NCBI GenBank assembly: GCA_009840005.1
Contig: VXOR01000091.1
Location: 33,696 to 97,695, forward strand
Origin: Gemmatimonadota bacterium
Lineage (GTDB): Bacteria > Latescibacterota > UBA2968 > UBA8231
Direction: 5' to 3'
DNA: 64,000 bases
The position numbers and the translations under genes were made by a program. Shown here piece by piece: positions 10,602-46,736 of the stretch (its first letter is position 1; each line of letters opens with the position of its first letter). Under the pieces are notes generated by a model. It searched no databases, was not told the DNA's origin, and saw only the letters and a program-made list of their open reading frames with translations.

Positions 10602-10625
10602 TGCGGGATCCCGACAGTATGCACA

Positions 10626-10655: not shown

Positions 10656-10658
10656 AAT

Positions 10659-11384: not shown

Positions 11385-11386
11385 AA

Positions 11387-12193: not shown

Positions 12194-12206
12194 ATTTGTA
12201 GTCGGC

Positions 12207-12443: not shown

Positions 12444-12450
12444 TTCTACA

Positions 12451-12681: not shown

Positions 12682-12718
12682 GGCATCACTGTCGGGTCAG
12701 TTTTACCTATCTAGCAGC

Positions 12719-13157: not shown

Positions 13158-13214
13158 TGCTTCTCTCCTTTTGGCTTTCGCTTAACGTTCTCGGCACTCA
13201 CGAACCCGCACCGC

Positions 13215-13595: not shown

Positions 13596-13638
13596 CGATG
13601 GTTGGTCCTCTCTGTTTCTATTCGATCCAATCAGCACC

Positions 13639-25096: not shown

Positions 25097-25102
25097 GGAT
25101 AG

Positions 25103-26794
25103 TCACGAACCGTGGCGGATTGGGTCAGTCACCTGATCTGATAGCAGACGACTGATTCCCACCTCGCTCAGTACTTGATGCCATATAGCATCTTCGCCGT
25201 GTGCTAGACGCTCCACGACGTTGTTGAAAAGCTCTCGCTTGGTTTCTAAGATTCGCTCTAGCACTTCTTCGATCGTCCCTCGACAACAGAAACGGTAAAT
25301 ACGCACCTTGCGGCGCTGACCGATCCGTACCACGCGGTCGCGAGCTTGGTCGTTGGCTGAGGGATTCCACCATTGGTTGAACAAAAAGACGTGGTTGGCC
25401 TCCACTAACGTGAGCCCTTCGCCCCCAACACGGCTTGAAGCAAGTAGCGCAAGCACTCGCTTGTCATCTCGAAAACGGGTCACGGCGTGATTTCGTTCAT
25501 CACTGTCCATTTCTCCCAACAAGAGCTCCGCTGATTCCTGCCCCCAACGTTTGGCAATCCTAGTCTGCAATTCTCGCAGCGGTTCAAGCCGATACGAAAA
25601 CACGACTGCTTTTTCATCCTGTTCGAGAATGCGCCCAAGCAGGTAGAGGATGCGGTCTACTTTGCAACTCCCTCGGCTATCGGGATCAATGTCGCAAAGC
25701 ATTTGCAACTTGGTCAGGAGCGCCAACTCCACTCCCTTTTCATCCGACCGGCGGTACTCATTCACTGCTGCTCGATAGGACCGTCCCTGTGCCTCCGACA
25801 GCTCCAGCGTCTCGACGGTATCGAGTACGGGCGGTAATTCCTGTAGGACTTCCTTTTTACGACGCCGCAACACGTATGGTTTCGCCCGGCTGCGTAACGA
25901 TGACGGGTGAAGCTTCGCGTCGGTGGGCGCAAAGCGGTTAGGGGCGACCAGGGACAATAACGTGGCCATATCCTCAAGGTCGCGTTCCAAGGGAGTGCCC
26001 GTAAGTGCCCAAAAACGCTTTGGTCGCAGTTCAAAAACCCCCGAAGTCACTTGTGCTCCGGATCTGCGCAGTCGATGAGCTTCGTCCGTGACGATTAAAT
26101 CTGGCGGCGTCCGTCGCAAGATTTCGGGAGGAGTGCGGAGTTGTTCGTAATTGGTCAATAACACGTGCCGCCGTCCGGTTACCGTTCTCCAAGCATCTTC
26201 GCGGAGACGTGCTGGAGGGACTAGTACCGCCACACCCAGTTCGGGAGCCCAGCGGCTAAACTCACGCTCCCAAGTTGCAATCAAACCTTTAGGACATATA
26301 ACCAAGGCAGTTCGGAGTTTTGCTCGGTTGAAAAGCAGGCGCATAGCTGAGATCACCTGCACCGTCTTCCCCAACCCCATATCATCAGCCAGAATACCGC
26401 CGCTTCGGTTGATGAGCCACTCTACGCCTTGATGCTGGAATGGATATAGCTGCTCCAGCTTCGGCGTATCTAGCAACAGGGGGCGGATCAGTGCGCCGAC
26501 ACTGAGCTGAAGTTTCCGGTAATTGGAGGGAGTCTCGCGCTCGACACGCCCGGCAACAATCCTTCGTCCGGCGGGGACGGTCACCTGTGGACTACCGCCC
26601 GCTCGGATCAGTTTTTGATACTGTGCGTCTAGTTCTAGTGCCCAATCGGCCGCACGTGCGAGCCGGTCAGCGACCGAGCCGTCAGTTTCGTTTTCGCATT
26701 CCGGACTCGGCCGAAGACGTAGTATCAAAGCACCGGACTCGGCGTCTTCCTCATTCTCAAAGCGTATCGAACAATCAAGAGCGAGTTGCGGCAT
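25103..26794 (-). CDS. SNF2-family helicase, last gene of the phosphorothioation-type operon
   Basis: 563 residues. Walker A GGILADDMGLGKT (residues about 132-144), DEAH at 237-240, TGTPL, and RVGGEGLTLVEANHV...RDRVVRIGQRRKVR in the C-terminal RecA lobe place it with the SNF2/RapA group, ATP-driven DNA translocases. No accessory nuclease, bromodomain or HARP motif is visible, so it is a bare translocase. It starts 19 bases after the 451-aa DGQHR gene and closes the operon. A DNA-remodelling or unloading role in PT-guided targeting is inference. Weak ribosome site. Confidence 0.85.
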   Translation of the reverse strand: MPQLALDCSIRFENEEDAESGALILRLRPSPECENETDGSVADRLARAADWALELDAQYQKLIRAGGSPQVTVPAGRRIVAGRVERETPSNYRKLQLSVGALIRPLLLDTPKLEQLYPFQHQGVEWLINRSGGILADDMGLGKTVQVISAMRLLFNRAKLRTALVICPKGLIATWEREFSRWAPELGVAVLVPPARLREDAWRTVTGRRHVLLTNYEQLRTPPEILRRTPPDLIVTDEAHRLRRSGAQVTSGVFELRPKRFWALTGTPLERDLEDMATLLSLVAPNRFAPTDAKLHPSSLRSRAKPYVLRRRKKEVLQELPPVLDTVETLELSEAQGRSYRAAVNEYRRSDEKGVELALLTKLQMLCDIDPDSRGSCKVDRILYLLGRILEQDEKAVVFSYRLEPLRELQTRIAKRWGQESAELLLGEMDSDERNHAVTRFRDDKRVLALLASSRVGGEGLTLVEANHVFLFNQWWNPSANDQARDRVVRIGQRRKVRIYRFCCRGTIEEVLERILETKRELFNNVVERLAHGEDAIWHQVLSEVGISRLLSDQVTDPIRHGS

Positions 26795-26813
26795 AGCCCG
26801 GCACTCACGTCAC

Positions 26814-28169
26814 TCAAGCACGAGTCACAATGCGCGTACGGGAATCCACGATCTCCTGCCACATCTCCTCGACCCGATGCTCTTCCGGAGGTTCGGGGTA
26901 CAGCCGGCCTTGCCAATCCGTACGCAGGGCCTTCGTATCGTCCTCATCAAGAGCATCGAGCCCCACGGTCCAACGAAGCAAACGCCCCGCGATCTCTAAG
27001 GCCGATTTTCGATCCTCGTTGCGCATACGCCAAGAGCTGTCTTCGGGTGACGCCGGTACGAGCAAAAGATAGAGCCAAGGGGCTCCGTGGAGGTTCCATG
27101 GCACTTCAGCCAATGGCTGCAGGGCGGCCTCCATCCCGGAAATCTCTGCATCGTCGCCGAGCTCCGCCCCGTCAAGCAGAGAACGGGCGATTTCAGCAAA
27201 CAGTTCCTGTCCAATTGGCCAGAACAGCAAATGATCCTGGTAGCCATCCGGATTGGGGTCGGGTAGATCATGCGTGCGCATGGTCTCCGGGTCTTCACGT
27301 AGGACCGGAACCGAGAGCAGTAGCGCGTCCCAGTAATTGGAAAGCGACTGATAGTAGCGGTCAATCTCGTTCTCATCCGGTCTGAATTGCAAGAAAACCT
27401 TGAGGTCCTTCGCCCTGCCCCACTGTCGGCGGCGTTCGGTTGTCATCAGTAGGATTTTGTTTACTTCATAGAGCGTCTGGAGGCTGATGAAGTGGGGAGC
27501 GCCCGGCCTCAGATTCTTTCCCTTAGTCTGAACTCGGAAGGATTGCTGCTCCGGATGCGGTGAACGGAAAAACTCATGATCAGTGATCAGCCGCCGCGTG
27601 ACGATAGCGAAGACGTCATCTTCATCCATGATGATGTTCGTGTCCGCGTCAGTCGGTTTCGCATATCGGTTCAAGCTTGAAAAGAGTCGCCGGTAGCGTT
27701 GCAGCCACAAGCCATCGTCCACATCCTGATCTTCGCGCACCACGACGATCACCGATAACTGTTCGTCTGCGAAGCCCGGCGGGGCACCCGCCGGATCCTC
27801 CATCAACTCCTTGATGGCTTTCAGGCGATGCTGCCCATCGAGAGCAAAGTATCGAGGATCAGTCTCGAAAGACAACTCTCCAAAAGTGTCCCGGAAGCGG
27901 GACTGATTAGGTGTCCAGGTCGGATTACCGCCGATAGCCGCCACGACTAAAGAAGAAAAAAAGCGATCGCTTCGGCGCGACAGGAAATTCACAATCTGTT
28001 GTTTGACTCGTGACTCGTCGAGCACCCGCTGAATGGCGTTGCTCAACGTCTTGTCTTCCCACAGATCACTCGCGAGTTGTACCTCACGTGCCACTTCGCG
28101 CATAGTCATGCGAACTATATAATAGTCCCAGTCGCCCATGCGTGACTTGATTGCCGGATAGAGTTGCAT
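26814..28169 (-). CDS. DGQHR-motif protein, DndB-like (1)
   Basis: 451 residues, ATG with AAGGAGACG. FALDGQHRLKAIKELM (residues about 108-123, DGQHR at 111-115) is the signature of the DGQHR family, to which DndB of phosphorothioation gene clusters belongs; DndB is known as a DNA-binding regulator there. The motif resembles the DGQQR of DUF262 in restriction effectors such as SspE. The rest is helical without other motifs. Distinct from its 608-aa neighbour despite the common core. Confidence in domain high, function inferred. Confidence 0.8.
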   Translation of the reverse strand: MQLYPAIKSRMGDWDYYIVRMTMREVAREVQLASDLWEDKTLSNAIQRVLDESRVKQQIVNFLSRRSDRFFSSLVVAAIGGNPTWTPNQSRFRDTFGELSFETDPRYFALDGQHRLKAIKELMEDPAGAPPGFADEQLSVIVVVREDQDVDDGLWLQRYRRLFSSLNRYAKPTDADTNIIMDEDDVFAIVTRRLITDHEFFRSPHPEQQSFRVQTKGKNLRPGAPHFISLQTLYEVNKILLMTTERRRQWGRAKDLKVFLQFRPDENEIDRYYQSLSNYWDALLLSVPVLREDPETMRTHDLPDPNPDGYQDHLLFWPIGQELFAEIARSLLDGAELGDDAEISGMEAALQPLAEVPWNLHGAPWLYLLLVPASPEDSSWRMRNEDRKSALEIAGRLLRWTVGLDALDEDDTKALRTDWQGRLYPEPPEEHRVEEMWQEIVDSRTRIVTRA

Positions 28170-28198
28170 CGTCTCCTTGTCTCCCGTTGTCCGTGAAC

Positions 28199-30025
28199 TC
28201 AGTCGGCCTTCGACGCGTCCTCAATCTTTTCCAACTCCCGTTCGAATCGGCGGAGTTGCTTTCCTGTCAGTTTTCCTGCTTCCCTATTCACCGCATCTGT
28301 CAGTTGTTTGCCGCCGTTCGGGTGTTCTGGTCTGAGTCTCGGCCGACATTCTCTCTTGTATCCGCGAAGGATCCTTGACTCCAGCCGGTCAAGAAGCTCT
28401 TCCTTCGACGCGGGCCAATTGACGGTCCATTCTTCTGGTATCGGCTGGCCATAAGCGACCACAAGGAGTTGCAAGTAGGCACCGAGGGCATGTTCAGCGT
28501 CCTCCAACCGGTAGTTGACGATGCTTTCATTGTGGTCCTCCACAACGTGGAGCAGAAACTTGCGACGTCTCGAAGAATGTAGATCAAGCCACTCATCCTT
28601 GTACAACAGGTTCAGTGCTCGTGTGAACCACTCTGCAAACGCCAGCCACTCCGGATTGTAGAAGCAACGACGTAGACTCCCGAATGCACAAACGACTCCA
28701 CGCATTCCAATGTCGAGGCTAACGAGAGTATGGAGCCGTTCTTTTTTTATTTCCTCGATTTTACTCTTTATGTTGGCAAGTGCTTCTTGCACTTTCGGTT
28801 TGATGGACTCTGGGGCAAGGTTCGTACCGAAGCGCAACTCGTAGAACGCATGGCGCGCCAGATCGCTTAGAGCCTCGTCTTCATATTCGCGCTCAAGTTC
28901 ATGCAATGCTTCTACGTACGAGCGATAAGGTGTGAAGTTCTCTAAAAGATGCGAGACAGCAGGCAATAATTCCTCCCTCACCAATTCGCGTAACGCCCTG
29001 GAATCCGCATGGTTGAGTTTCTCGTCATAAAACGCCCTCTTTAAAGAATAATGGACCGGAGTGATGCCAAGAGCGGTTTCCTGATCGTCGGAGAAGTCCT
29101 CTCCTATCACGTAATGCTCGAACCAGTCGCAGATCTCTTCAACACCCTTGACCGACGCGGGAGCATGGATACGCTGCTTTTCACTTTCTTCACCGCGCCA
29201 ATCGTAGAACAGTAGCGGCAAACGGACCGAAACGCGTTCCTCCGGTTGCAATAGGTCGTTATCGTGGGAAAGCTGAATGAGCTCTTGGGCACAAACTGCG
29301 TTCACGCTCTCATCCGAGAGCAGTATCTGTCTCGCACGGTTGACGATTCTGGCTTGGGTATTGATATAGACGAAGATGTTGCGCACGACCTCCAGTACGC
29401 TAGGCGGCTTAGTCCGCCTAGTTCCCACTCGGAAGGAGATGATTACCACTGGTATGCGCCACGTACTAAAGTCCTTATGGACTGTTGCCTCGTGGTCGGC
29501 CCAGAATCGCTTGAGTGCTGACAGCCGGTGCTGACCATCAATAGCGACGAGCTTGGTTCGAGTATCGCTCCATTCCAGCAAGGCGTATTGCGGATTGTCC
29601 TTCACCCAGCGCATGCGGTGGTAATCCTTTTTCTCAAAAAAGTCCCATTCGTAGCCGCCCTCCTGCATGGTGGACTCGGTTTCTTCCATAGGCATCTGTG
29701 ACAAAACGGAGTCATCGTTTTCGCTAATCGGCAACAGTATCAGCGTAAGCGGATTGAAAAATTTGATCTTCTCCCCATCTTGGAGGTAGGGGAGTAGTGA
29801 TCCTGTAATTCGCTCGTTATCAACATCACGCTGAAAGAGTTCGCGCACTGGCCAGCGTTCGGAGCCACGAAGGTCGCTGATCAGCGACACCAAGTCCAAC
29901 TGAGACGGTGTCAACGCAGATTGAAGATAAAAGGCATGAACTCCCGCTCCGGTTCCAAATTGCCCATAGACACCTGGTAATTGGTGGTTATACTGATGTT
30001 CAGTGGGTGGTGGACCAATTGACAT
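28199..30025 (-). CDS. DGQHR-motif protein, DndB-like (2), large
   Basis: 608 residues, ATG with AGGAG only 6 bases upstream. KLVAIDGQHRLSALKRFWAD (DGQHR at residues 163-167) identifies the family; RTKPPSVLEVVRNIFVYINT (residues about 209-228) is another conserved-looking stretch. It is longer than DndB (~360 aa), with a helical C-terminal half (coiled-coil-like LANIKSKIEEIKKERLH at about 429-445). It starts 9 bases after the GIY-YIG gene. Regulator, NTPase sensor or PT-reader are all possible; none shown by sequence. Confidence 0.8.
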   Translation of the reverse strand: MSIGPPPTEHQYNHQLPGVYGQFGTGAGVHAFYLQSALTPSQLDLVSLISDLRGSERWPVRELFQRDVDNERITGSLLPYLQDGEKIKFFNPLTLILLPISENDDSVLSQMPMEETESTMQEGGYEWDFFEKKDYHRMRWVKDNPQYALLEWSDTRTKLVAIDGQHRLSALKRFWADHEATVHKDFSTWRIPVVIISFRVGTRRTKPPSVLEVVRNIFVYINTQARIVNRARQILLSDESVNAVCAQELIQLSHDNDLLQPEERVSVRLPLLFYDWRGEESEKQRIHAPASVKGVEEICDWFEHYVIGEDFSDDQETALGITPVHYSLKRAFYDEKLNHADSRALRELVREELLPAVSHLLENFTPYRSYVEALHELEREYEDEALSDLARHAFYELRFGTNLAPESIKPKVQEALANIKSKIEEIKKERLHTLVSLDIGMRGVVCAFGSLRRCFYNPEWLAFAEWFTRALNLLYKDEWLDLHSSRRRKFLLHVVEDHNESIVNYRLEDAEHALGAYLQLLVVAYGQPIPEEWTVNWPASKEELLDRLESRILRGYKRECRPRLRPEHPNGGKQLTDAVNREAGKLTGKQLRRFERELEKIEDASKAD

Positions 30026-30034
30026 TCTTTTCTC

Positions 30035-30676
30035 CTATTTCAGACTGAATGGTGGGCGACAGAACCGCATCAGTATCTGCTCGACCAATCTTTCAAGGTC
30101 ATCTTCAGCGACTCCATGAGGCACTTGAGGTGTCTTCTGTTCGGTTTTGATACAAACAAAGAGTAGATCACTAACGTCGATTGCGAGATTTAAATTCGAG
30201 ACGTGTTCGGTGAAGCGGGAGTGGAAATCGTTCCTATCGTCACTATTTCCTCCCACGTGTTTCAGATAACGCCGTCTGAGATTTTTGGTTTTGCCAACGT
30301 AGAGAGGGGGCATCAGCAAGCTTGCTTCCAACATGGTCTGCTGTAGCTCCCCTTTCGCCTGTGCGTCGGCACATACGCGTTCCCAAGTCGAACGTATTTT
30401 TTTCGTAGTCTGAGTCTCGGCGGCGCGTCGTACTCTCAGTTTCACGGATTCCCAAGCAAATCGAACGTTTGCTTCCCTCTCCAGTTTGTTATCGTAATCG
30501 AGTACATCGCCCACAACTTGCATCAAATCATTCAAGTCGGAATGATAGAACCACAGCGGTAGGAACCAAGCATAGCAGCCTGGTTGTTCAGGAATCCTTT
30601 CCTTGGTTTCCTTCGTATAGAAACCGAGCCGGCTGTCGGTGTTCGTAAGATTACTGAAAACTTTTAGGAGATCCAT
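30035..30676 (-). CDS. GIY-YIG nuclease-like protein
   Basis: 213 residues. The GIY-type strand is GCYAWFLP at residues 33-40; the YIG-type motif is LYVGKTKNLRRRYLKHVGG (125-143), separated by about 85 residues rather than the usual 10-15. RxxxLKH supplies the conserved Arg and a second basic residue, and DLERLVEQILMRFCRPPFS near the C-terminus provides the conserved Glu and the P-F motif that precedes Asn in the family (here Ser). The insert is helical and basic. Likely an endonuclease of the operon; the long insert makes it unlike UvrC or restriction enzymes of this type. Catalysis unproven. Confidence 0.75.
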   Translation of the reverse strand: MDLLKVFSNLTNTDSRLGFYTKETKERIPEQPGCYAWFLPLWFYHSDLNDLMQVVGDVLDYDNKLEREANVRFAWESVKLRVRRAAETQTTKKIRSTWERVCADAQAKGELQQTMLEASLLMPPLYVGKTKNLRRRYLKHVGGNSDDRNDFHSRFTEHVSNLNLAIDVSDLLFVCIKTEQKTPQVPHGVAEDDLERLVEQILMRFCRPPFSLK

Positions 30677-30726
30677 AGATATCGCCTATTTTCTCAACTT
30701 TCGCAGGGAAGAACGACTTTACTGTC

Positions 30727-31215
30727 CTACGCTGCCTTTTCTTCTTTCAAGAGGGTGTCAACAGCATCGGACAGATTCCAGATCGGATCCGCATCTCCAT
30801 CCTTCAGCATTTCAATGACCTTTGGTAGCCCGGCCACGGCAAGACCGCTAGCGAGCGCCATCATCTTTCGCGGTTCCGATACAATCTGCACATCGCCTGT
30901 CATGCCAACTGCAATTAGCATCAGTGTCTGGACACGCCACGGATCGCTGCCAAAAATAGAGCCGTCGATGATTTTCCGCGTATCGTACTTGTTAATATCA
31001 GCCGGTTTTAACTCAAGACGCGCAGCAACGCAGACAGAAAAAAACCAGAGATCAACCATGCGTGGAAACGGCTTATCATCAATGCGCGTAGACGGCTTAT
31101 CATCAATGCTACTACTATCGCTCGTCCCTTGGCAGTACCGAACGAACGCCCCGTGGTGTCCGACTGGCACATTGATGTCGGTCGATTGGAACGGATTGAA
31201 GTAGCGATCCACCAC
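30727..31215 (-). CDS. Unknown 162-residue operon protein
   Basis: 162 residues, GTG start with GGAGG 5 bases upstream (a second GTG codon follows directly). The protein is mostly helical; WRVQTLMLIAVGMTGDVQIV in the middle and an acidic C-terminus DPIWNLSDAVDTLLKEEK are visible, with no catalytic motif. It resembles none of the known DndE/SspE proteins as far as I can tell. The gene is 9 bases after the SMC-like gene and 50 before the GIY-YIG gene. Function unknown; probably a structural or DNA-binding subunit by context. Confidence 0.55.
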   Translation of the reverse strand: MVDRYFNPFQSTDINVPVGHHGAFVRYCQGTSDSSSIDDKPSTRIDDKPFPRMVDLWFFSVCVAARLELKPADINKYDTRKIIDGSIFGSDPWRVQTLMLIAVGMTGDVQIVSEPRKMMALASGLAVAGLPKVIEMLKDGDADPIWNLSDAVDTLLKEEKAA

Positions 31216-31224
31216 CTTTGCCTC

Positions 31225-33351
31225 CTATAACACTATTTCTGGTTCGACTTCTACATCCGTGCGACGCTGGCATAGTTGGCATTCGCTCCTGTGATCGCAA
31301 TCGCAACGCAAAACCTTGCGATCGACGTCGCCAGGATCGTTAACAAGCACCTTCGGGTAATGCGCCGGATTGGTCAGCGTGACGATTTTGCCTGCGGTCT
31401 CGTCGATTATCTCTTCGCATCCGGCAATTTCGTCGTGAGTCAGAAACAGCACGAGTTGTGCGCTCTTCTGCACCCCTGTTCTCAAGATAGAATTTTTGAC
31501 ATAGCCGCTCGTCATACCGAGCGGCGTATCAATGACATTCGGTGCTTTGGCTTGGCTGACCTCCGTCAGCGCCAAGATGAAAGCAAGCGTCAAGGCACGG
31601 CGCGACGCACCGTTCAGGTCGCGGTCCGGGTTGAGCGTCCTCTTTTCGGGACCATAGACGATAATGTCGAAATCTTCGCTGATCTCCGCTCTCCGAATAA
31701 TAGCGCCCTGATCTGGATCCGCCCCGATCATTTCGAGAAAATTGTCGTTCATCTGCTCACTGACTTTGGTGAGTTCCTCGTTCGTAATTCGCTCATAAGC
31801 GCTCTTTAATACCTTGATTACATCCCTTTTGACATCTAGTCCTGACAGGATGTGCATGGCCTTTTTCTCTTTTTGTAGCAGCCGCTCGTGTTTGCCTTGA
31901 ACTTCTTTGATTTCTTTCTGCAAGTCGGTAAGCTTTGTTTCGATTTCCGTGGTAGTCCTTAAGTATTCATCGCGCTGCTCCCTATACATAGAGAGCTTTG
32001 ACCTCAGCTCCCGGATGTCAGTGTCAGACAGTTTGTCTAGTTGCTGTTCTAGCGTACGGAATCTGCGACCCGCTTGGTCTCGCTGGTCTTCCAGATTGTT
32101 CCGTTTTTCTAAGACCATCTTGTAGTCTTCTAGCCAAGTTTTACTCTCAGTATTTCGCATCTGCGAATAGCGAAAGAGACTCGTGATGGTCTTTTGGGCT
32201 TCATCAGCACACATGCTACTTTCGATAAGATGCTGAATATGTTCACGACGCCTCTTTCCGTCTGGATTATCGGATTTCAATGCCTCGCCGCAAATGCAGA
32301 TCTCTTCCGAGAGCCGCTCCTGAAGCATAGGAATCGTCGTATCCGTAATCTTAACTTGGTCATACTCCTCAAGTTTCTCATGAGCTCGGCTGAGAGGGGA
32401 GGCTAGCAGGTCTCTCGCAATAGCATGGCTACGGAACAATTCCGAATGCTCTTTTTTCGCATCAACTAACCTATCATCGAGTTCTTTGATTTCGCTTCGC
32501 GTGTTTTCAATATCTTTTTTTAGCTTTTCCTTATCGCCTTTCTGAAGTGCTACCATGATCTTGCTCTCGATTTCATTCACTTTCTCGCTACTCGCATTGA
32601 ACTGCTGTTTAGCGCCTTTGAGTCTGCATTCCAGTTTGTTCGTGTATTCTTCGAGCTTTTCAAGCTGCAAGGCGGTAGCTGTCAACTCATCACTGCTACT
32701 GACCTTTTTCGATTCCTTTGTTGCTGAGGCTTCCGACTTTCTGACATGGCCGATCGCGTCCTCAATGATACCTAAACCGAGAAGGGAGCGAATGGCGTTT
32801 GCCACACGCTCACGCTTGATTGCTTGGCTACCATGAGCTTCAATAAAGCTTAGTGCCCTATCGCCGTCCGTGAAAAAGACATCGCGCAATTCAGATGGCA
32901 TCTCCTCGTTAATAATCGCTTCAGGCTCTTCAAAGGAATGCGCCCCACTCTCATCTAGCTCAAACAGTTTCACGGTTGAGCTTGGACGGGGGGACTGACT
33001 GTCCACGACCTCAAACGCGGATCGCTCAAGCCTGTAATGCCGCTGAGTCTCACGTGTTTCACTACCCACCCTCCTATAGGTTGAGATCTTAAATTCTACT
33101 GTCGCGGTGATTGGAACGCGCGTATCATATCTTGTATCCCAGTCAATGGGATATAGGCGGAATCCGTTGCCATTGTTAGGCAATGCATCGTCTCCGTAGA
33201 GTGCCCATTTTAAGGCATGGAGAATCGTCGTTTTACCCGACTCGTTTGCCGCTCGGATGACCGTCAGATTTTTGTCAGGATCGCTAGCAAACTCAAGCTC
33301 CAAATCTCGGAGCAACCGAAAGTTCTGGAATTTCGCACGAATCAGCTTCAT
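31225..33351 (-). CDS. DndD/Rad50-like SMC ATPase
   Basis: 708 residues. Walker A VIRAANESGKTTILHALKWA (GKT at 39-41; Ala replaces the usual first Gly, as in AAA_23-type enzymes), long coiled coils from about 170 to 540 interrupted by a CICGEAL hook-like CxC (about 352), ABC-signature LNGASRRALTLAF and Walker B NVIDTPLG in the C-terminal half. The C-terminus CDCDHRSECQLCQRR offers a possible zinc site. It is DndD-like in layout, yet the operon already carries SspC. Start overlaps the 81-aa gene by 4 bases. Base composition is AT-richer than SspC. Confidence 0.85.
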   Translation of the reverse strand: MKLIRAKFQNFRLLRDLELEFASDPDKNLTVIRAANESGKTTILHALKWALYGDDALPNNGNGFRLYPIDWDTRYDTRVPITATVEFKISTYRRVGSETRETQRHYRLERSAFEVVDSQSPRPSSTVKLFELDESGAHSFEEPEAIINEEMPSELRDVFFTDGDRALSFIEAHGSQAIKRERVANAIRSLLGLGIIEDAIGHVRKSEASATKESKKVSSSDELTATALQLEKLEEYTNKLECRLKGAKQQFNASSEKVNEIESKIMVALQKGDKEKLKKDIENTRSEIKELDDRLVDAKKEHSELFRSHAIARDLLASPLSRAHEKLEEYDQVKITDTTIPMLQERLSEEICICGEALKSDNPDGKRRREHIQHLIESSMCADEAQKTITSLFRYSQMRNTESKTWLEDYKMVLEKRNNLEDQRDQAGRRFRTLEQQLDKLSDTDIRELRSKLSMYREQRDEYLRTTTEIETKLTDLQKEIKEVQGKHERLLQKEKKAMHILSGLDVKRDVIKVLKSAYERITNEELTKVSEQMNDNFLEMIGADPDQGAIIRRAEISEDFDIIVYGPEKRTLNPDRDLNGASRRALTLAFILALTEVSQAKAPNVIDTPLGMTSGYVKNSILRTGVQKSAQLVLFLTHDEIAGCEEIIDETAGKIVTLTNPAHYPKVLVNDPGDVDRKVLRCDCDHRSECQLCQRRTDVEVEPEIVL

Positions 33352-33593
33352 GAGTCCGATTCCTCCGAACCCGTATGGGAACCGCGTTTTTTTACAAGGA
33401 TCTGAGCAGCGTCATCGAATCTTTTGTTTATATCCTTTTGGATATTCGTTTTCGAGACGCGATGGCCATGTTCATACATAAGAATGTCGGTAATCACATC
33501 GCCAATATCTTCCCTGTAGCCGTTGTAACGTTCGTCTATTCCGGCACATTCTTCAGAGATGATCTCGATTATCTTTCTTTCGTTTAGCGGCAT
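33348..33593 (-). CDS. Small acidic operon protein, unknown
   Basis: 81 residues, ATG with GGAGGCGAG upstream. Helical sequence KIIEIISEECAGIDERYNGY, then VITDILMYEHGHRVSKTNI, followed by a basic C-terminus KKRGSHTGSE. No known family. Its stop overlaps the SMC start by 4 bases, so the two are translationally coupled, a common pattern for partner subunits; DndE (about 120 residues) is a comparison but there is no similarity I can see. Confidence 0.6.
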   Translation of the reverse strand: MPLNERKIIEIISEECAGIDERYNGYREDIGDVITDILMYEHGHRVSKTNIQKDINKRFDDAAQILVKKRGSHTGSEESDS

Positions 33594-33633
33594 CTCGCCT
33601 CCAGTCCCTTACAAGATCGGAGTCAACAATTCT

Positions 33634-34482
33634 TCACAGCGAACACACCGTACAAGCCTCAGTATCGTCCTCATCGTCGAGAGCTTCAGCGAGTGCCTCA
33701 ACCAACGGGACATTGGTCTTCTTCTTACCGGCGCGATCCATAGCAGCTTTGTGCCGTGCGAGAATTTCCTCGCGGCGCTTGAGCAGTTGAACAAGCGTCT
33801 CGCCACCTGACCATGTATATTGGCGGCCACGCATGGCTCGGTCAGAGAAATCAGCATCGCCGTCAACACCAGCGTCACGCAGCACTTTCTGCTCGATGGC
33901 AATGGCTCGGTCGAAGAGTTCGGGATGGCGCTCGGCAAGGCCGATCCACTCGGCTTTGCGCTGGTAAAAGCAGAAATAACACCCGGAGCGAGTTCGCCAC
34001 TCGTAGTATTCGGGGAGGCCAATGCCAGCATCTTCGAGGATGCGGAGGACGTCGTCGTGTGTCACGCCATCTTCGACAAACGGGAAGCGAGTCTTGATGT
34101 TGGGCTTGGTGGAAATGTAGCCCTTGCGATTGGACTCGTCGGCGCGAATGGCGACGTACGAAATGACCGGCTCATCGCCTACCCACTCCTCAATCGGCTT
34201 GATTTTCATGTTTCTGGTACACCACCGCATCTGCGGAGACGGCAGCGCACCTCGGAACACCTCAAACCAGTGTTCAAAGCCACGTGAGGCATTGAGCCTA
34301 GCTATCGGCTTGCCGAGTATGACCTCAAGCCGGGTCAAGTATTCGTAAGTCTCGGGCAGTTCAGCCCCGGTGTCGCAGAAAAAGTACTCCATATCCGGAA
34401 CCTCGCGGCGCATGTACACAGCGAGAGCGCTGGAGTCCTTGCCCCCTGAAATGCCACAAATGTGGCGCGTGTTATCAGCCAT
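33634..34482 (-). CDS. sspD: SspD-like PAPS-reductase/PP-loop protein (phosphorothioation)
   Basis: 282 residues from ATG at 34482, with GAGGAGA upstream; 57 codons further upstream are open but overlap SspC. PP-loop ISGGKDSSALAVY (residues 11-23), then CDTGAELPETYEYLT, RWCTRNMKIKP (C88) and SGCYFCFYQRK (C168, C171), the arrangement of DndC/SspD. These enzymes activate DNA backbone for sulfur transfer from the desulfurase. The C-terminus has another CTVC pair. It starts 8 bases inside SspC, which argues for coupled translation. Confidence 0.8.
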   Translation of the reverse strand: MADNTRHICGISGGKDSSALAVYMRREVPDMEYFFCDTGAELPETYEYLTRLEVILGKPIARLNASRGFEHWFEVFRGALPSPQMRWCTRNMKIKPIEEWVGDEPVISYVAIRADESNRKGYISTKPNIKTRFPFVEDGVTHDDVLRILEDAGIGLPEYYEWRTRSGCYFCFYQRKAEWIGLAERHPELFDRAIAIEQKVLRDAGVDGDADFSDRAMRGRQYTWSGGETLVQLLKRREEILARHKAAMDRAGKKKTNVPLVEALAEALDDEDDTEACTVCSL

Positions 34483-37400
34483 GTTGTCTCCTCTCTTCAG
34501 TAGGCGCATCCTGTTCAGACGCAGGTAGGAGCCTTTCGCCAAGCAATGCGAGGAGTGTTTGCTGGGCACGGGCTGGGGAGCCGGTAAGGTCAGTAAGGCG
34601 CGCAAGCGCAGTGTCGAGAGCCCCCTCGCAGGCATCTCGCTGGTCTTGGTCAACTCCGACGAGGCGGACGTACTCAGTGCCGTCGGCCCGAGTGACGGTC
34701 AGCCTCATAGCGTCTGAGTCAACTCCGGCGGCGTGGAGAGCGACGAGCCGCTGGAAAGACGCGATTTGCTGAGATAGCTCTGTGCGGAAGCGGTCGCAGT
34801 CGGCGTCCGTCCACTCAGCCGGGGCTTTTTTGGCGACAACAGTCGCAATGGTCTGAATCCAATCAATATCGGAATCAATGCCATCGTTGGCGAGTGCAAG
34901 GACAAATGCACGCACCTCAGAATCGAGTACCTCGCCATCGAGTGCAGCAGCTTGTTCCGCAATAGCGAGGCGGGTGGTCTCTCCACTAACAGAAAACAAC
35001 TCATTGAGCATCTCATCCACAAGGCGTTGGTAGGAGCCTGTCAATTCTTCAAGCGCACTAGCGACGGAGTCCGCATACTCGCTCGCCTTGCTGTAAGTCT
35101 TGGTCGCGGCCGGGACGGGGCTATAGCCAAGGGCCTCTGGGATCGCGGCGAAGAGCAATTCGTCGGGTTCCACAGCGGCAGCGAGGGCCTCGCGGAGGGC
35201 AACAGCGGTATCCGAAAGATTGCACGTGCGCCTTGTGTAGTTGTCGAGCTGTCTTACCTGCGACACGAGTTCGCCAACGACAGCGAGGACATTGGAGACG
35301 CGGTGCTTGCGGAAGCGAGGACGGACCTCGAGCCGAGCGGCGAGTGCTCCAATGACTTGGCGACGCGCACCGGACGTGTTGGCGAAATGCTTGATGTCAA
35401 AGTGCTTGGGGTTGCGAACCATCCGCTCGGAGAGATCATCGGTGAGAAGCGGCCTGAACGTGCCGTGCTCGTAAATTGCGACTTCGTTACTGAACGCTAG
35501 CAGCCCAACTGTGACGAAGACGGGAATCACCTCGGCCTTCATCCCAATCGGCGGCGACAGCAAGGCTGCGTAGATGTCCGCAAGATTGATTCGACGGGTT
35601 CGGGCGCGGCGGAATTCGGATTCGAGAAGGTCCCATGCCGGCTGCAATTTCTTATCAGTCGGCGAGCGGAAAACCATGACTTCATTGCGCTTATCCCAGC
35701 CGTGCATGCCCGTTCCTTTAATAAAGGCATGGTACATAGCCACTTCAGGGCCATGTCCTTCGAGCTTGAGGTCAACATGGTTGCCGAATTCGATCATGGC
35801 TTCAAGCAACATGCGCCGGGCCTTAGCCCCTTGCGAGGTAACGTCCGTGCGGTTGAGCATCTCGTTGCCCACGGTCGGCGTCTTTGAGTAAGCGCGGTCG
35901 GCTGCCGCTGAGAGCGCGGCACTGCCCCGGCGTCTAGCCGTACCAGCTAGAAGATTGGTCGGCCCGTCGGGACCGAGCAGGACCCAACGGCAAACCTCGG
36001 CGTTGAACGTGGCTTCTATAGCATTACTCAATGCGGTCTCAGCTTGGGCGAGTCGTTCCCCGATTTCGCGCCGCGCAACCCAATCGTCTTTTACGCTATC
36101 GTGGTCGAGGACATCGGCAACGGCTGCAACCTCACGGGCTGCATCGTCGAGGAGGGCAAGATCGTCCGGAATGGCGGCAACGACAGGTTTTGCATTTTCA
36201 CCAGCTTGAGCGAGCGTTGGTATGGAATCTGGCGCGACCGTTAGCAGGACCTCCCCGTCGTAGGGAGAGAACGGGTCCAGCGGGGTGACCGGCTCAGTAC
36301 CGTCAACGTAGCGGCGGGCAAACACGCGCAGGATGTCGTGTTCGGCACTGTGCCGAGCTGCAACCACGGGTTCAGGTTTGTGGATTGAAGCGAGGATTTC
36401 CACGAGCGGCTGACGCTGCACTTTGGCGTGAGCGGCCTTGATAAGCCCGCGAATATCAACGTCCGTGCCGTGCCAGATTCGGAACTCGTCGGCAAAATCA
36501 CGATATGTGACGATACCGGCGTCTTGTAGGCTTGTTAGGGCCTTTGCTGCGCCGTTGAGAGCGATGTCGAGCACTTGGGCGGAGGCGCGGGCGGCACCAC
36601 CGGTGGAAACGAGGTTGAGGATGGCGATCGACTTGGCCAGCTTCGTTTGGCTTTCCGTCAGACCATGGGCGTCGCGCAGCCGGGTGGCGATCTCTGACCA
36701 CCGCTGCGAATAGCCAACCGCGCCTGCTCCGCCCGCGACGAAGTAGTTATAGACAGCATCTAGGCCGAGCGATGGCAATACACCCCGATCCGACAAGGGG
36801 GCAGAGGACAAGAACGAAGCGGCAGTGGCCGAGTCAGCTCCGGTTAGGAATGAGAAGAGAGTACGCTCGTGCTGTCCGTAGCGGCTGCACAGTTCTGGGA
36901 GCACTAGGGCGGTAAGGGGATGCAGCGGATAGCACGCCTCGACCGCAGCGGCAGTAGCGAGGTCGGCGACTCCGAGCGCGCGCATCTCTTTAGCATGGGT
37001 CCCAGCCCATCGTCTGATGCGGGGTTGTAGATCATCGTCAATCTCGAAAACCGTTCCGATCAGGGCGCGGGTCTGAGCGGCAGACTCGATATACGCGACA
37101 TCTTCAAATCGGCCTTGGACCTTTGCCCACTCCCTCCGTCGCGGCCCATCAATGCCAACGAGATAATCCTCAAAGGACAAGTGTTGTAGCGTTAGCGCGA
37201 AGATCGGGAGGCCAGCTCCTTGTCCTGCCTCGGCGAGTTGTTGCAGGAGATAGGGGTCGGCATCCGATCCATCGCTGATTGCTTCGAGGTTTTTACCAAA
37301 TTCGTCGATGATGAGCAGCAATGGGGCGTCTTCGGCCAAGCAGCGGGCCACTTCGAGCAGGTCCGCTGGCGAGGGACCAACTCGACGCGGGTCATCGGAT

Positions 37401-37909
37401 GCAGCGTCAGCGAGTGCGGTCTTGAGTGTTTTAGCCCCCCGGAATGTGCGCGTCGAGGGGATGGTTCCATAGGTCCGGATGACGGCAGACTCAAGCGCTC
37501 GCAGGACGGTGTGGTGCAGTGGCTCACGACTCGCGGTAACTACAGCGCGGTGGAACCCCCGCTCATCGGTTCCACGGGCTTGATGTGCGCGAGCGAGGAG
37601 GTCGGCTACGGCCGGCGATGTCTCCTCAATGAGTTCAGTCGCAGCAGCTCGCATGGCACTGCGTTCGCCAAATGCGGCGTCGAGAAGTAACGCGAGCGAT
37701 GATTTGCCCGATCCGTAAGGACCGGTCAACGACCAAGCTCCGCCTGCTGCACCGTTAGCGGCCGTGGTGGCAATGCGCTCCACCACATCGAGTGCCCGGG
37801 CAGTGACAACATAGCCATCGAGTGGCTCGCGACGGGCGATGTCGCGCTCTAAGCTAGCCGAGCGAGCAAATCGCCCCACAACGCCAATGTAGTCTGCTAG
37901 CGCTCCCAT
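34475..37909 (-). CDS. sspC: SspC-like large P-loop ATPase
   Basis: 1144 residues. Walker A SLTGPYGSGKSSLALLLDA at residues 61-79 and Walker B LLIIDEFGKNLE at about 198-209. The rest is a long, mainly helical protein with no other recognised domains. In phosphorothioation systems, SspC is the ATPase encoded between SspB and SspD; order and orientation match that here. It starts one base inside SspB's stop and ends inside SspD. High GC compared with the SMC gene. Biochemical role in PT is ATP hydrolysis; the present protein is untested. Confidence 0.75.
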   Translation of the reverse strand: MGALADYIGVVGRFARSASLERDIARREPLDGYVVTARALDVVERIATTAANGAAGGAWSLTGPYGSGKSSLALLLDAAFGERSAMRAAATELIEETSPAVADLLARAHQARGTDERGFHRAVVTASREPLHHTVLRALESAVIRTYGTIPSTRTFRGAKTLKTALADAASDDPRRVGPSPADLLEVARCLAEDAPLLLIIDEFGKNLEAISDGSDADPYLLQQLAEAGQGAGLPIFALTLQHLSFEDYLVGIDGPRRREWAKVQGRFEDVAYIESAAQTRALIGTVFEIDDDLQPRIRRWAGTHAKEMRALGVADLATAAAVEACYPLHPLTALVLPELCSRYGQHERTLFSFLTGADSATAASFLSSAPLSDRGVLPSLGLDAVYNYFVAGGAGAVGYSQRWSEIATRLRDAHGLTESQTKLAKSIAILNLVSTGGAARASAQVLDIALNGAAKALTSLQDAGIVTYRDFADEFRIWHGTDVDIRGLIKAAHAKVQRQPLVEILASIHKPEPVVAARHSAEHDILRVFARRYVDGTEPVTPLDPFSPYDGEVLLTVAPDSIPTLAQAGENAKPVVAAIPDDLALLDDAAREVAAVADVLDHDSVKDDWVARREIGERLAQAETALSNAIEATFNAEVCRWVLLGPDGPTNLLAGTARRRGSAALSAAADRAYSKTPTVGNEMLNRTDVTSQGAKARRMLLEAMIEFGNHVDLKLEGHGPEVAMYHAFIKGTGMHGWDKRNEVMVFRSPTDKKLQPAWDLLESEFRRARTRRINLADIYAALLSPPIGMKAEVIPVFVTVGLLAFSNEVAIYEHGTFRPLLTDDLSERMVRNPKHFDIKHFANTSGARRQVIGALAARLEVRPRFRKHRVSNVLAVVGELVSQVRQLDNYTRRTCNLSDTAVALREALAAAVEPDELLFAAIPEALGYSPVPAATKTYSKASEYADSVASALEELTGSYQRLVDEMLNELFSVSGETTRLAIAEQAAALDGEVLDSEVRAFVLALANDGIDSDIDWIQTIATVVAKKAPAEWTDADCDRFRTELSQQIASFQRLVALHAAGVDSDAMRLTVTRADGTEYVRLVGVDQDQRDACEGALDTALARLTDLTGSPARAQQTLLALLGERLLPASEQDAPTEERRQHG

Positions 37910-38907
37910 TAACGTGTCTCCACGGTGACGACACTATCCTCAGCGTCGAATAACCCAAGCTGGTCGCCTTTGCCGACCTCAGTATCTGGGGTGATGTCGT
38001 AGTAAGACGAAAGCACCTCGTTAGCCACAGTCGCGGGGTCGCCGGACCAAGACAACTGAGGCGCACCGGTCGGCGAGGCAAGTTCCAGCGCATTAGTGGT
38101 CGTCGCCGTCTGTTGAAGCGCGTCGAACATATCCGCTTCTGTCAGCTTGAAAGCATGGCCCGGTGCCCCTGGTTCATGCGTTAGGCGGCTAAGGGTCGCG
38201 GTGTTCCCCCCGGTTTCAGTGCGAGCGAGATAGTCGAGTGCAGCATAGCTCACAATCTCCGGTGGCAGTGTTGGTTTCGCCCCGAGAACGAATCGGTAGC
38301 TACCGGTGGCTTGGGATCGTCTGATTAAACCTAGTTCACGCAAAGGACAATCGAGGCGGTCGTCAATGCTGCGCCCGGCGCGTTTTGAGCGCTCGGCTGG
38401 TGCGTAGGTCCGCAATAGAGCACTCACGTCCTTCTTCAAGGATGAAGGATGCGGCTTCGTCCACCCCCCTACCGACTCCAGCCCAACGGCGACGACGTGG
38501 TCAAGTGCTTCGTCAGTGAACTCGACCGGGTGAAACTCATTGAATGCGATCCACCACACAGGTAGGAGCGACGGCGGTGCCAATAGCTGCCAGTGCAGTA
38601 ACCAGAGCGTACCCGGATCCTCCATGTATGGATCCCATCCCGATTCGCCGAACAACTCGTGACCGAACTTCGTCGAGACCAACCCCGGCCCTTGCCGATC
38701 CTCTTCGATCAGCTTGGCCGCGAGTCCCCAAAACCGAATAGCCCGAACCATGTTCTTGCCAACCCCAATCAAAACTGGAGCCTCTACATGGGTAAATATC
38801 TGAGGATCGCGCTCCGTCACGGCGTATGCCTTGCGAAACCAGCCGTAGCGGGGATGGAACGTCTCGTGTCGAGCGAAAGTTGGCTTGGCCGCCTCGACCA
38901 ATCGCAT
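37909..38907 (-). CDS. sspB: SspB-like DUF4007 protein
   Basis: 332 residues. The N-terminus FARHETFHPRYGWFRKAY and then VLIGVGKNMVRAIRFWG (about residues 45-61) are the DUF4007 signature. DUF4007 is the family of SspB, the DNA nickase of the SspABCD single-strand phosphorothioation system as I recall it; here it lies directly between a cysteine desulfurase and a large ATPase, the SspA-B-C order. Both ends overlap neighbours by one base. Nickase activity is inferred. Confidence 0.8.
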   Translation of the reverse strand: MRLVEAAKPTFARHETFHPRYGWFRKAYAVTERDPQIFTHVEAPVLIGVGKNMVRAIRFWGLAAKLIEEDRQGPGLVSTKFGHELFGESGWDPYMEDPGTLWLLHWQLLAPPSLLPVWWIAFNEFHPVEFTDEALDHVVAVGLESVGGWTKPHPSSLKKDVSALLRTYAPAERSKRAGRSIDDRLDCPLRELGLIRRSQATGSYRFVLGAKPTLPPEIVSYAALDYLARTETGGNTATLSRLTHEPGAPGHAFKLTEADMFDALQQTATTTNALELASPTGAPQLSWSGDPATVANEVLSSYYDITPDTEVGKGDQLGLFDAEDSVVTVETR

Positions 38908-40064
38908 TACGCTTCTCCTCCATTCATGGCCCGCACGTAATCGACTGCGGCAATGGTTTTCTGAGCTGCGATCTCGATCTCCTCCGTCGTGGTAAACCGG
39001 CCCAAACTGAACCGCACAGACTCAAAGGCCGCTTCCCGCGACAACCCCATCGCCAGCAGCACCGCAGAAGGTTCAATAGCACCGGCACTACACGCACTGC
39101 CGGTCGATACCGCCACCGGGTCCATGTTGGCAACTACTGCCTCAGCGTCCGCCCCCGTGAAGCGGATGTTCACCGTGTTGGAGAGGCGGCAGTCAATGTC
39201 TCCATTTTCCTCGACTTCGGATAGACCACGCTTCAACTCGGCAACGAGGCGGTCGCGGAGAGGACGTATCCGATCCGCTTCCTGCACGCGCTCTTCGACG
39301 GCAATCTCAGCAGCGGCCCCAAACCCAACGATACCGACGACGTTCAGCGACCCAGAGCGCAAGCCCCTTTCGTGACCGCCGCCGTGAATGATGGGGCGCA
39401 GCCGCCCGCTGGATTTCGCGGCGACGAGAGCCCCGACGCCGCCAGGACCACAGATTTTGTGGCTACTAAGTGACACCAAATCAGCACCTATGTCGGAGAG
39501 ATCGAAGGGGAGTCGACCCGCGTATTGGGTCGCGTCGCAGTGAAACAGAGCACCGGCAGCATGAGCGCGTTCCGCGATCTCTACCACCGGATTCAGTACG
39601 CCGGTCTCGCTATTAGCAGCCATGACCGACACGAGCAGGACATCGTTGCCGAGCAAAGCCTCAAGTGCGTCGAGATCAACGGCCCCGCCGCTAGTCACCG
39701 AGATCGCATCGACTTCGGCAAGCGACTGATCGCTTAACCACCGAGCCGTCTCCCGGACTGAGGCGTGTTCCACTGAGGAGACAAGAATCCGGCCCCGATC
39801 CGCTGGCCGAGCAGCAACAATTCCGCTAAGAGCGAGATTATTGGCTTCGGTAGCTCCGGCTGTAAAAATAACATGCGTTGGCCGACCCCCAACGAGCGAC
39901 GCGACGCGAGCGCGAGCATCTTCGACCGCAGCAGCTTGCCGCCGACCAAACCGATGCGTAGATGAAGCGTTGCCGTACCACTCAGCGAGAGCGGGCCACA
40001 TGGCCTTGCCCACGCGGGGATCAAGAGGGGAGGAGCCGTTGTAGTCGAGGTAAACCTCGATCAC
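38907..40064 (-). CDS. sspA: SspA/DndA-like cysteine desulfurase
   Basis: 385 residues from GTG with AGGTGG nearby. Type I PLP-dependent desulfurase: N-terminal VYLDYNGSSPLDP, PLP-Lys in SLSSHKICGPGGVGAL (K203), HGGGHERGLRSGS and catalytic Cys in STGSACSAGAIEPSAV (C325). It supplies persulfide sulfur, in such operons to SspD/DndC. First gene of the 11-gene minus-strand operon. A general IscS or NifS role is also possible, but location points to DNA phosphorothioation. Confidence 0.85.
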   Translation of the reverse strand: MIEVYLDYNGSSPLDPRVGKAMWPALAEWYGNASSTHRFGRRQAAAVEDARARVASLVGGRPTHVIFTAGATEANNLALSGIVAARPADRGRILVSSVEHASVRETARWLSDQSLAEVDAISVTSGGAVDLDALEALLGNDVLLVSVMAANSETGVLNPVVEIAERAHAAGALFHCDATQYAGRLPFDLSDIGADLVSLSSHKICGPGGVGALVAAKSSGRLRPIIHGGGHERGLRSGSLNVVGIVGFGAAAEIAVEERVQEADRIRPLRDRLVAELKRGLSEVEENGDIDCRLSNTVNIRFTGADAEAVVANMDPVAVSTGSACSAGAIEPSAVLLAMGLSREAAFESVRFSLGRFTTTEEIEIAAQKTIAAVDYVRAMNGGEA

Positions 40065-40179
40065 GATGCCACCTGCTTAGGTCAACAGATTGAACTGACA
40101 CATACGGCAGAATTTTGTTCCCGGAGTATTTATAGAATCAAGCCATTTACTTCGTCTGCGTCAATCCACAGACAGCAAC

Positions 40180-46594: not shown

Positions 46595-46621
46595 GCCAGT
46601 TCCCCTTTCCCACCAAAGCGA

Positions 46622-46659: not shown

Positions 46660-46736
46660 TGGCGCACCCACAGGGACTCGAACCCCGAACCTTCTGATCC
46701 GTAGTCAGGTGCTCTATCCAATTGAGCTATGGGTGC
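46660..46736 (-). tRNA. tRNA-Arg (anticodon ACG)
   Basis: Minus-strand cloverleaf of 77 bases: acceptor GCACCCA pairing TGGGTGC, D arm GCTCAATTGGATAGAGC, anticodon stem CTGAC/ATCAG variant around loop CTACGGA giving ACG, T arm GGGGTTCGAGTCCC, discriminator G and encoded CCA. ACG would be modified to inosine for CGN codons. Confidence 0.9.

What the first reader, a model, noticed from the sequence alone, without database searches (positions are those of the whole stretch)
25103..40064. SspABCD phosphorothioation operon continued by seven genes including SMC ATPase, GIY-YIG nuclease, two DGQHR proteins and a SNF2 helicase
Eleven genes on the minus strand follow each other with gaps of -8 to 50 bases. 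The first four carry motifs of SspA (cysteine desulfurase, C325), SspB (DUF4007), SspC (P-loop ATPase) and SspD (PP-loop SGGKDSS). Known SspABCD partners are SspE (DUF262/DUF1524) and SspFGH; I see no SspE-like gene, and cannot compare SspFGH by sequence here. The downstream set adds a DndD-like SMC protein, a GIY-YIG nuclease-like protein, two DGQHR-motif proteins, two small unknown proteins and a SNF2 helicase. I infer a single-strand phosphorothioation system with a new restriction module, where SMC/GIY-YIG/SNF2 would act on unmodified DNA. Order and packing are seen; the function is inference.
Basis: partly seen in the sequence, partly recalled or inferred. Interest (0 to 1): 0.92.

Follow-up and report, generated by a model that had tools for sequence, protein, structure and literature searches.

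The report
Hybrid phosphorothioate-based defence operon
An eleven-gene bacterial operon that very probably marks the cell's own DNA with sulphur carries, behind the marking genes, three genes of one known defence module and four genes of a little-noticed second module (nuclease, two sensor-like proteins, DNA motor); it may name one of the missing cutting partners of this marking system.

Summary
In detail: eleven tightly packed minus-strand genes, 25103-40064. Genes 1-4 are SspA-D by PADLOC models. The 'seven-gene new module' is two modules. Genes 5-7 are the described PbeB-PbeC-PbeD set; the 'SMC' is a CxC zinc-hook ABC ATPase. Their usual nuclease-helicase PbeA, present in 19 of 22 related loci (the other 3 contigs start in or at gene 6), is absent from the window. 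Genes 8-11 (GIY-YIG nuclease, two DGQHR/DndB-type proteins, SNF2 helicase) recur beside sspBCDA without PbeBCD: all four in 2 unnamed Acidobacteriota-phylum genomes, some in 2 more, of 5 genomes found with gene 9. Contig lengths link genes 8 and 9 in 51 of 120 entries, gene 7 with neither. In the listings and passages I saw, no paper describes this cassette with Ssp. Two close host relatives lack exactly 25100-40204, so the operon came or went as a unit. Best reading: SspABCD marks self DNA and genes 8-11 form a phosphorothioate-gated restriction module; PbeBCD is a graft, either re-wired to the new nuclease and motor or a remnant. Function is inferred; nothing was tested at the bench.

The parts
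38907..40064 (-). sspA: cysteine desulfurase (385 aa, C325)
   Evidence: PADLOC SspA 1.8e-129; DndA 8.6e-127; SACS motif at 323
37909..38907 (-). sspB: DUF4007 protein (332 aa)
   Evidence: PF13182 6.5e-84; PADLOC SspB 2.7e-102
34475..37909 (-). sspC: large P-loop ATPase (1144 aa)
   Evidence: PADLOC SspC 1034 bits; Walker A GPYGSGKS at 63
33634..34482 (-). sspD: PP-loop/PAPS-reductase-like sulfurtransferase (282 aa, start ATG 34482)
   Evidence: PADLOC SspD 7.7e-111; SGGKDSS
33348..33593 (-). gene 5: small protein, PbeB equivalent (81 aa)
   Evidence: matched in 19 of 22 gene-7 loci; 27% over 51 aa to the small protein of a SspABCD-PbeABCD plasmid locus
31225..33351 (-). gene 6: CxC-type ABC ATPase, PbeC equivalent (708 aa, CIC zinc hook at 352)
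   Evidence: PADLOC PbeC 1e-53 above DndD 4e-35; a CxC at residue 330-376 in 19 of 19 related ORFs over 600 aa
30727..31215 (-). gene 7: PbeD/DndE-like protein (162 aa)
   Evidence: hhalign to a six-protein PbeD set 92.5% probability, E 4.8e-7; TIGR04062 in 2 of 16 aligned members, best 3.7e-5, not in the window's own copy; strand-helix-helix twice in the model
30035..30676 (-). gene 8: GIY-YIG (URI) nuclease (213 aa)
   Evidence: PF01541 in 19 of 32 aligned members; invariant GCY 33-35, YVG 126-128, R136, H140, E199
28199..30025 (-). gene 9: DGQHR protein with a long helical C-terminal part (608 aa)
   Evidence: TIGR03187 6.1e-7, below its cut-off; hhalign to a DndB/gene-10 set 97.8%, 1.1e-12; model
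26814..28169 (-). gene 10: DndB-family DGQHR protein (451 aa)
   Evidence: PF14072 1.7e-29; 67% to the G1180 and G1134 copies
25103..26794 (-). gene 11: SNF2-family helicase/translocase (563 aa), no nuclease domain found
   Evidence: PF00176 4.5e-46 and PF00271 1.5e-16; Walker A, DEAH and RVVRIGQ present
25100..40204 (.). unit that is absent from two close host relatives
   Evidence: empty site in G480 and G483: flanks match to 25099 and 25090 and again from 40205

Best explanation
A horizontally moving phosphorothioate (PT) defence operon. SspA-D put sulphur into the backbone of part of the host's own DNA at a short motif (inferred from family). Genes 8-11 are its restriction arm: the two DGQHR/DndB-type proteins sense PT and hydrolyse NTP, as SspE and DndI do with a DGQQR motif; the SNF2 protein moves along DNA; the GIY-YIG protein cuts or nicks DNA that lacks the mark. 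Genes 5-7 (PbeBCD) are the DNA-scanning core of a second, known PT partner that has lost or exchanged its nuclease-helicase PbeA. In this operon the GIY-YIG nuclease and the SNF2 motor stand where PbeA's nuclease and helicase normally act. Shown here: gene identities, conservation of the motifs named, recurrence of the cassette beside sspBCDA, absence of PbeA from the 64-kb window, absence of the operon as one unit in two relatives. Inferred: every activity, the order of events, mobility, and any contact between PbeBCD and genes 8-11.
For: SspABCD identity. sspB-C-D-A-8-9-10-11 in G1180; sspB-C-D-A-9-8-9-10-11 in G1134; sspB-C-D-A-9-10 in G1176, whose contig ends 485 bases further; sspD-A-9 in G565, whose contig ends in gene 9. 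Genes 8 and 9 share 51 contig lengths in their two top-120 lists (mean 0.26, at most 3, in 1000 shifted controls); gene 7 shares 0 with either. Putative catalytic GIY-YIG residues invariant in 32 aligned sequences. Gene 9 shares a profile with DndB/gene 10. PT-stimulated NTPase gating is reported for SspE (PMC9646914, passages; DGQQR of SspE from PMC10952713, passage) and DndI (PMC11662687, passages). 2211 of 2678 sspBCD loci were without sspE and sspFGH (PMC8092258 section 9). Empty sites.
Against: No function was tested. Genes 8-11 are complete in only 2 of 5 gene-9 genomes besides the window. In G1176 and G565 there is no room for gene 8 between sspA and gene 9 (under 200 bases), so gene 8 is not always there. 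G960 has gene 9 beside a different partner set. DndB is discussed as a regulator (PMC12839542 passage), and stand-alone URI nucleases were proposed as backup suicide effectors (PMC10853773 section 17). Window SspC and SspD sit on long branches outside the G1180 clade. PbeABCD was not counted in the 2678-locus survey and pairs with ssp genes in 18 of my 22 loci, so part of the partnerless loci may simply have PbeABCD.
Confidence: 0.55

Rival explanations
1. Two stacked modules that only share the PT mark: genes 8-11 work alone with SspABCD, and PbeBCD is an inactive remnant of PbeABCD left after PbeA was lost.
For: G1180 and G1134 have genes 8-11 with sspBCDA and no PbeBCD match in the fetched stretches; PbeA lies before gene 5 in 19 of 22 loci, and the other 3 contigs start in or at gene 6; a plasmid carries sspABCD-pbeABCD in the window's order, with PbeA between sspD and pbeB; deletion of single pbe genes impaired defence in the archaeal system (PMC6459918, passages).
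Against: In the same archaeal work pbeBCD without pbeA still gave a low level of resistance. Genes 5-7 are intact ORFs and close relatives of gene 7 (85-96% identity, 6 clusters, 45 member sequences) exist, so they seem to be kept; the whole operon is absent as one unit in two relatives.
Confidence: 0.4
2. Genes 9 and 10 only regulate the amount of PT, and gene 8 is a suicide nuclease that acts when the main system fails; the SNF2 protein is its partner.
For: DndB is proposed to limit ATP for phosphorothioation (PMC12839542 passage); stand-alone URI nucleases were proposed as backup effectors (PMC10853773 section 17); gene 8 is missing beside gene 9 in G1176 and G565.
Against: Then no main restriction component would remain in the G1180 locus, where only sspBCDA and genes 8-11 were recognised. 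Gene 8 lies inside the operon, not at its border.
Confidence: 0.2
3. It is one of the described Ssp partners (SspE, SspFGH) or type 4 BREX under diverged sequences.
For: SspC resembles BrxC and SspD resembles BrxP in part.
Against: No SspE, PglZ or BrxL among the PADLOC matches shown for the eleven proteins (genes 6 and 11 cut at 25 rows), although the SspE model finds the GmrSD-type protein of L002 at 1.5e-282. No FtsK/HerA-type Pfam domain, as reported for SspH (PMC8092258 section 6), in genes 5-11.
Confidence: 0.04

Closest known systems
SspABCD-SspE / SspABCD-SspFGH
   Same: the four modification genes; a downstream partner that would read PT; DGQHR resembles the DGQQR NTPase motif of SspE-type proteins
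   Different: no DUF262-DUF1524 protein and no FtsK/HerA-type domain found; partners are GIY-YIG, two DGQHR proteins and SNF2
PbeABCD (CxC ABC ATPase-DndE systems)
   Same: PbeB, PbeC and PbeD equivalents in the usual order directly behind sspD
   Different: PbeA (HKD/PLD nuclease fused to SF2 helicase) is missing from the window; GIY-YIG nuclease and SNF2 helicase are separate genes further down
SspABCD-PbeABCD on Sphingomonadaceae plasmid CP099618.1 (L037)
   Same: sspA-B-C-D then Pbe genes, collinear with genes 1-7
   Different: PbeA present, genes 8-11 not annotated there; PbeC 40% identical
   Same: all four cassette genes in the same order (52, 49, 67, 63% identity)
   Different: no PbeBCD match; SspC only about 29% identical to the window's; SspA last instead of first
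URI nucleases near Dnd/CxC systems (PMC10853773)
   Same: GIY-YIG-type nuclease near a PT system
   Different: there tending to lie at borders, sometimes on the other strand; here inside the operon and linked to gene 9 on many contigs

Membership tests
SspABCD modification system | four proteins SspA, SspB (DUF4007), SspC, SspD in one operon | tested here: met
   PADLOC best models for all four
SspABCD modification system | PT in host DNA at a single-strand motif | not testable with these tools
   needs mass spectrometry or iodine cleavage
PbeABCD | PbeC: CxC-type ABC ATPase | tested here: met
   PbeC 1e-53; CIC at 352; CxC at 330-376 in 19 of 19 related ORFs
PbeABCD | PbeD: DndE cognate | tested here: met
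   hhalign 92.5%, 4.8e-7; TIGR04062 in 2 of 16 aligned members, none in the window's own copy; Foldseek gave no significant match and no DndE
PbeABCD | PbeB: small protein before PbeC | tested here: met
   matched in 19 of 22 loci; plasmid PbeB 27% over 51 aa; no PADLOC match
PbeABCD | PbeA: HKD/PLD nuclease fused to SF2 helicase | tested here: not met
   tblastn of the L003 PbeA against the 64-kb window: no match at 1e-3; the rest of the genome is not held
SspE partner | DUF262 + DUF1524 protein | tested here: not met
   no SspE among PADLOC matches shown; positive control; gene 10 GmrSD_N 0.017 is below cut-off
SspFGH partner | Walker-A SspF, SspG, SspH with FtsK/SpoIIIE-like C-terminus | tested here: inconclusive
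   no such match shown and no FtsK domain in genes 5-11; whether PADLOC holds these models was not checked with a control
DndABCDE | DndC and DndD equivalogs | tested here: not met
   sspD 19.4 bits vs 290.4 for DndC; gene 6 105.7 vs 245.85 for DndD
GIY-YIG (URI) nuclease superfamily | GIY, YIG, Arg and Glu active-site residues | tested here: met
   invariant in 32 aligned sequences; that these are the active-site residues is recalled; the window copy alone is below the Pfam cut-off
DndB / DGQHR (ParB-like) | DGQHR motif and DndB profile | tested here: met
   gene 10 PF14072 1.7e-29; gene 9 below the TIGR03187 cut-off (29.5 vs 58.85) but hhalign 97.8%
Type 4 BREX | PglZ and BrxL with PT genes | tested here: not met
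   no PglZ or BrxL among PADLOC matches shown for the eleven proteins (genes 6 and 11 cut at 25 rows)
Zorya / Dpd / DISARM (SNF2 helicase) | whole-protein ZorD, DpdE or DrmD | tested here: not met
   gene 11 matches only the helicase part of these models; all 11 NCBIfam cut-offs missed

The most novel reading that the evidence does not exclude
Genes 8-11 are an undescribed PT-gated restriction module (GIY-YIG nuclease, two DGQHR sensors, SNF2 motor) that partners SspABCD in several phyla, and in this operon the PbeBCD scanning core has been re-wired to it, so that the nuclease-helicase PbeA of a CxC-DndE system was exchanged for a separate nuclease and motor.
Probability: 0.3. Interest if true: 0.8.

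Novelty: new variant of a known kind. Interest (0 to 1): 0.6.

Why it matters
Most sspBCD loci (2211 of 2678 in PMC8092258, section 9) had neither sspE nor sspFGH. Genes 8-11 are a concrete, testable candidate partner, with 488 gene-9 relatives and 168 gene-8 relatives at E<=0.001. The operon also suggests that the nuclease and motor of a phosphorothioate system can be swapped while the scanning core stays, which would help to explain the mix-and-match organisation of these systems.

Tried and rejected
Rejected: SMC identity of gene 6 (CxC hook, PbeC best). SspE, BREX 4 and Dnd readings. The idea that all seven genes form one conserved set: 0 of 22 gene-7 loci have genes 8 or 11, 0 of 22 of those genomes have gene 9 at 1e-10, and the stretches of the 5 gene-9 genomes show no genes 5-7.
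Full report
WHAT IS THERE. Eleven minus-strand genes lie between 25103 and 40064 with gaps of -8 to 50 bases. The first four are SspA, SspB (DUF4007), SspC and SspD by PADLOC, with SACS (C325), Walker A and SGGKDSS motifs. GC at third codon positions is 0.63-0.65 in the ssp genes, 0.48-0.58 in genes 5-9, 0.64 in gene 10 and 0.56 in gene 11, against 0.72-0.83 in eight flanking genes measured. The operon therefore looks foreign to its host.

GENES 5-7 ARE PbeBCD. Gene 6 matches PbeC models (1e-53) better than DndD (4e-35) and carries a CxC zinc hook, as do 19 of 19 related ORFs over 600 aa. PMC10853773 (sections 14, 16, 17 and passages seen) states that PbeC is a CxC-type ABC ATPase misnamed SMC, PbeB a fast-evolving small protein, PbeD a DndE cognate and PbeA an HKD nuclease fused to an SF2 helicase. 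Gene 7 is a PbeD homologue by profile comparison with six proteins that follow the ATPase in plasmid pbe loci (92.5%, E 4.8e-7); one of the six is annotated DNA phosphorothioation-associated protein 4. TIGR04062 matches 2 of 16 aligned gene-7 proteins, not the window's own. The model (mean pLDDT 79.5) shows strand-helix-helix twice, as expected for two ribbon-helix-helix units, but Foldseek found no DndE. A scan of one genome per species with gene 7 gave 22 loci in several phyla. Of these 22, 19 have PbeA upstream of gene 5; the other 3 contigs begin in or at gene 6; 18 have at least one ssp gene; 0 have gene 8 or 11. The PbeA of L003 hits the PADLOC PbeA model at 3.9e-196 and helicase plus PLD-like Pfam models (the PLD one just below its cut-off). 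A Sphingomonadaceae plasmid has sspABCD-pbeABCD collinear with genes 1-7. PbeA has no match in the window.

GENES 8-11 ARE A SEPARATE CASSETTE. Gene 8: 19 of 32 aligned proteins (window plus 31 of 120 listed relatives) match GIY-YIG, best 1.7e-5; GCY 33-35, YVG 126-128, R136, H140 and E199 are invariant in the 32 (that these are catalytic residues is recalled). Gene 9 and gene 10 share a DndB-type profile (97.8%, 1.1e-12) and both carry DGQHR. Gene 11 is a SNF2 helicase without a nuclease domain in Pfam or NCBIfam. Gene 9 was sought in whole genomes: 0 of 22, 0 of 398 (32), 0 of 16 (34), 0 of 64 (41), 1 of 296 (43), 2 of 347 (44), 4 of 72 (49, two of them already found), 0 of 200 (52), 0 of 198 (53), 1 of 9 (73, the one). 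The sets overlap in part, the E-value limit was 1e-10, 1e-30 and 1e-20 later, and only up to 3-6 candidates a genome were scored. That makes 5 distinct genomes. Ssp genes lie on the same fetched stretch in 5 of 5. G1180: sspB-C-D-A-8-9-10-11. G1134: sspB-C-D-A-9-8-9-10-11. G1176: sspB-C-D-A-9-10, no room for gene 8 between sspA and gene 9, and the contig ends 485 bases after gene 10 without a gene-11 match. G565: sspD-A-9, again no room for gene 8 before gene 9, and the contig ends in gene 9. G960: gene 9 near three genes that by position and length resemble the PLD, ATP-binding and helicase genes of L038/L039 (not tested by profile), with ssp genes closer to those of L003. None of the five shows genes 5-7 in these stretches. 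An independent link: among the 120 best relatives of each, genes 8 and 9 share 51 longest-contig lengths (27 among contigs of 20 kb or more, of 48 and 58), while shifted lengths share 0.26 on average and at most 3 in 1000 trials; genes 7 and 9 share 0, genes 7 and 8 share 0 (correcting). Only the top 120 of 811, 488 and 168 relatives were compared, clusters are represented by their longest contig, and equal length is a proxy for the same contig. Names given by sources put gene-9 relatives in Gammaproteobacteria and Spirochaetaceae records and a gene-8 relative in an Acidobacteria record.

ONE UNIT. The window's TopA is 92-96% identical to that of 8 of 64 genomes in the phylum of G006, the genome of L006, a record titled Candidatus Latescibacterota; none of the 64 has gene 9 at 1e-20. 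In G480 the flanks match up to 25099 and from 40205, in G483 up to 25090 and from 40205: the 15.1-kb unit is absent there, with 18 and 26 bases in its place. That it was inserted rather than lost is inferred from its composition. G484 keeps about 160 bases of the sspA start at the same place, followed by other genes, so the operon, or one with the same sspA start, seems to have been there.

HOW IT MAY WORK. SspE and DndI are PT-sensing NTPases with DGQQR whose NTP hydrolysis governs nicking or release from self DNA (PMC9646914, PMC10952713 and PMC11662687, passages). By analogy genes 9 and 10 would sense PT, gene 11 would move along DNA and gene 8 would cut unmarked DNA. PbeBCD would add DNA scanning, or be a remnant; in the archaeal system pbeBCD without pbeA kept a low level of resistance (PMC6459918, passage).

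KNOWN OR NEW. Searches of the held library: SspFGH 21 papers, PbeABCD 10, sspBCD with GIY-YIG 0, DGQHR 6, phosphorothioa with sspBCD and pbeABCD 1, which lists both without joining them, phosphorothioa with SspABCD and SNF2 4, phosphorothioat with GIY-YIG and DndB 5, SspABCD with restriction and DndB 20, 15 listed, SspABCD with PbeABCD 9. I saw passages or sections of PMC8092258, PMC10853773, PMC6459918, PMC12839542, PMC10952713, PMC8053081, PMC12421847, PMC9646914, PMC12707154, PMC11662687, PMC9239217, PMC7461809 and PMC11676413, none in full; the rest only as listings. In what I saw neither the cassette nor a SspABCD-PbeABCD pairing is described. Supplementary gene tables could not be read, and PMC10853773 reports URI nucleases near Dnd/CxC cores, so single cases may be listed there. 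Hence: new variant of a known kind.

LIMITS. The window's eleven-gene order was not found in any other locus I could fetch. Close relatives of genes 7, 8 and 9 exist in the protein lists (gene 7 85-96%, gene 8 77-93%, gene 9 83-94% identity), but their contigs could not be fetched. No whole genome is held for the window, so PbeA elsewhere in the genome is not excluded.

Noticed in passing
L037 (CP099618.1) 3208-14306: Sphingomonadaceae plasmid with sspABCD directly followed by pbeABCD; 18 of 22 gene-7 loci also hold ssp genes near Pbe genes, a pairing not described in the paper passages I saw.
   Followed up: partly
L038 (Trichormus plasmid), L039 (Roseobacter pROLI83), L029/L030 (G960): SspABCD beside another partner set: DEAD/DEAH helicase of about 540-555 aa, ATP-binding protein of about 610-645 aa, phospholipase-D-family protein of about 305-320 aa, and a DndB/DGQHR protein (annotations in L038 and L039; in G960 by position and length only).
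   Followed up: no
L001, L005, L009 downstream of gene 7: Large genes beside PbeABCD: a 790-aa protein (two HATPase matches in L005), a 632-635-aa protein (no Pfam match in L005), and in L001 and L005 a third (HNH, AAA_16 and TPR matches in L005). Only the L005 copies were scanned.
   Followed up: partly
L040 (G483), about 1209-21990; window equivalent 46603-46605: A close host relative has a 21-kb island with sspABCD and Pbe-like genes about 55 bases from the tRNA-Arg gene (window 46660-46736).
   Followed up: partly
L042 (G484), 18883 and beyond: Remnant of the sspA start at the operon's site, followed by about 40 kb without a match to the window, including an ORF that looks DUF262-like by eye.
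   Followed up: partly
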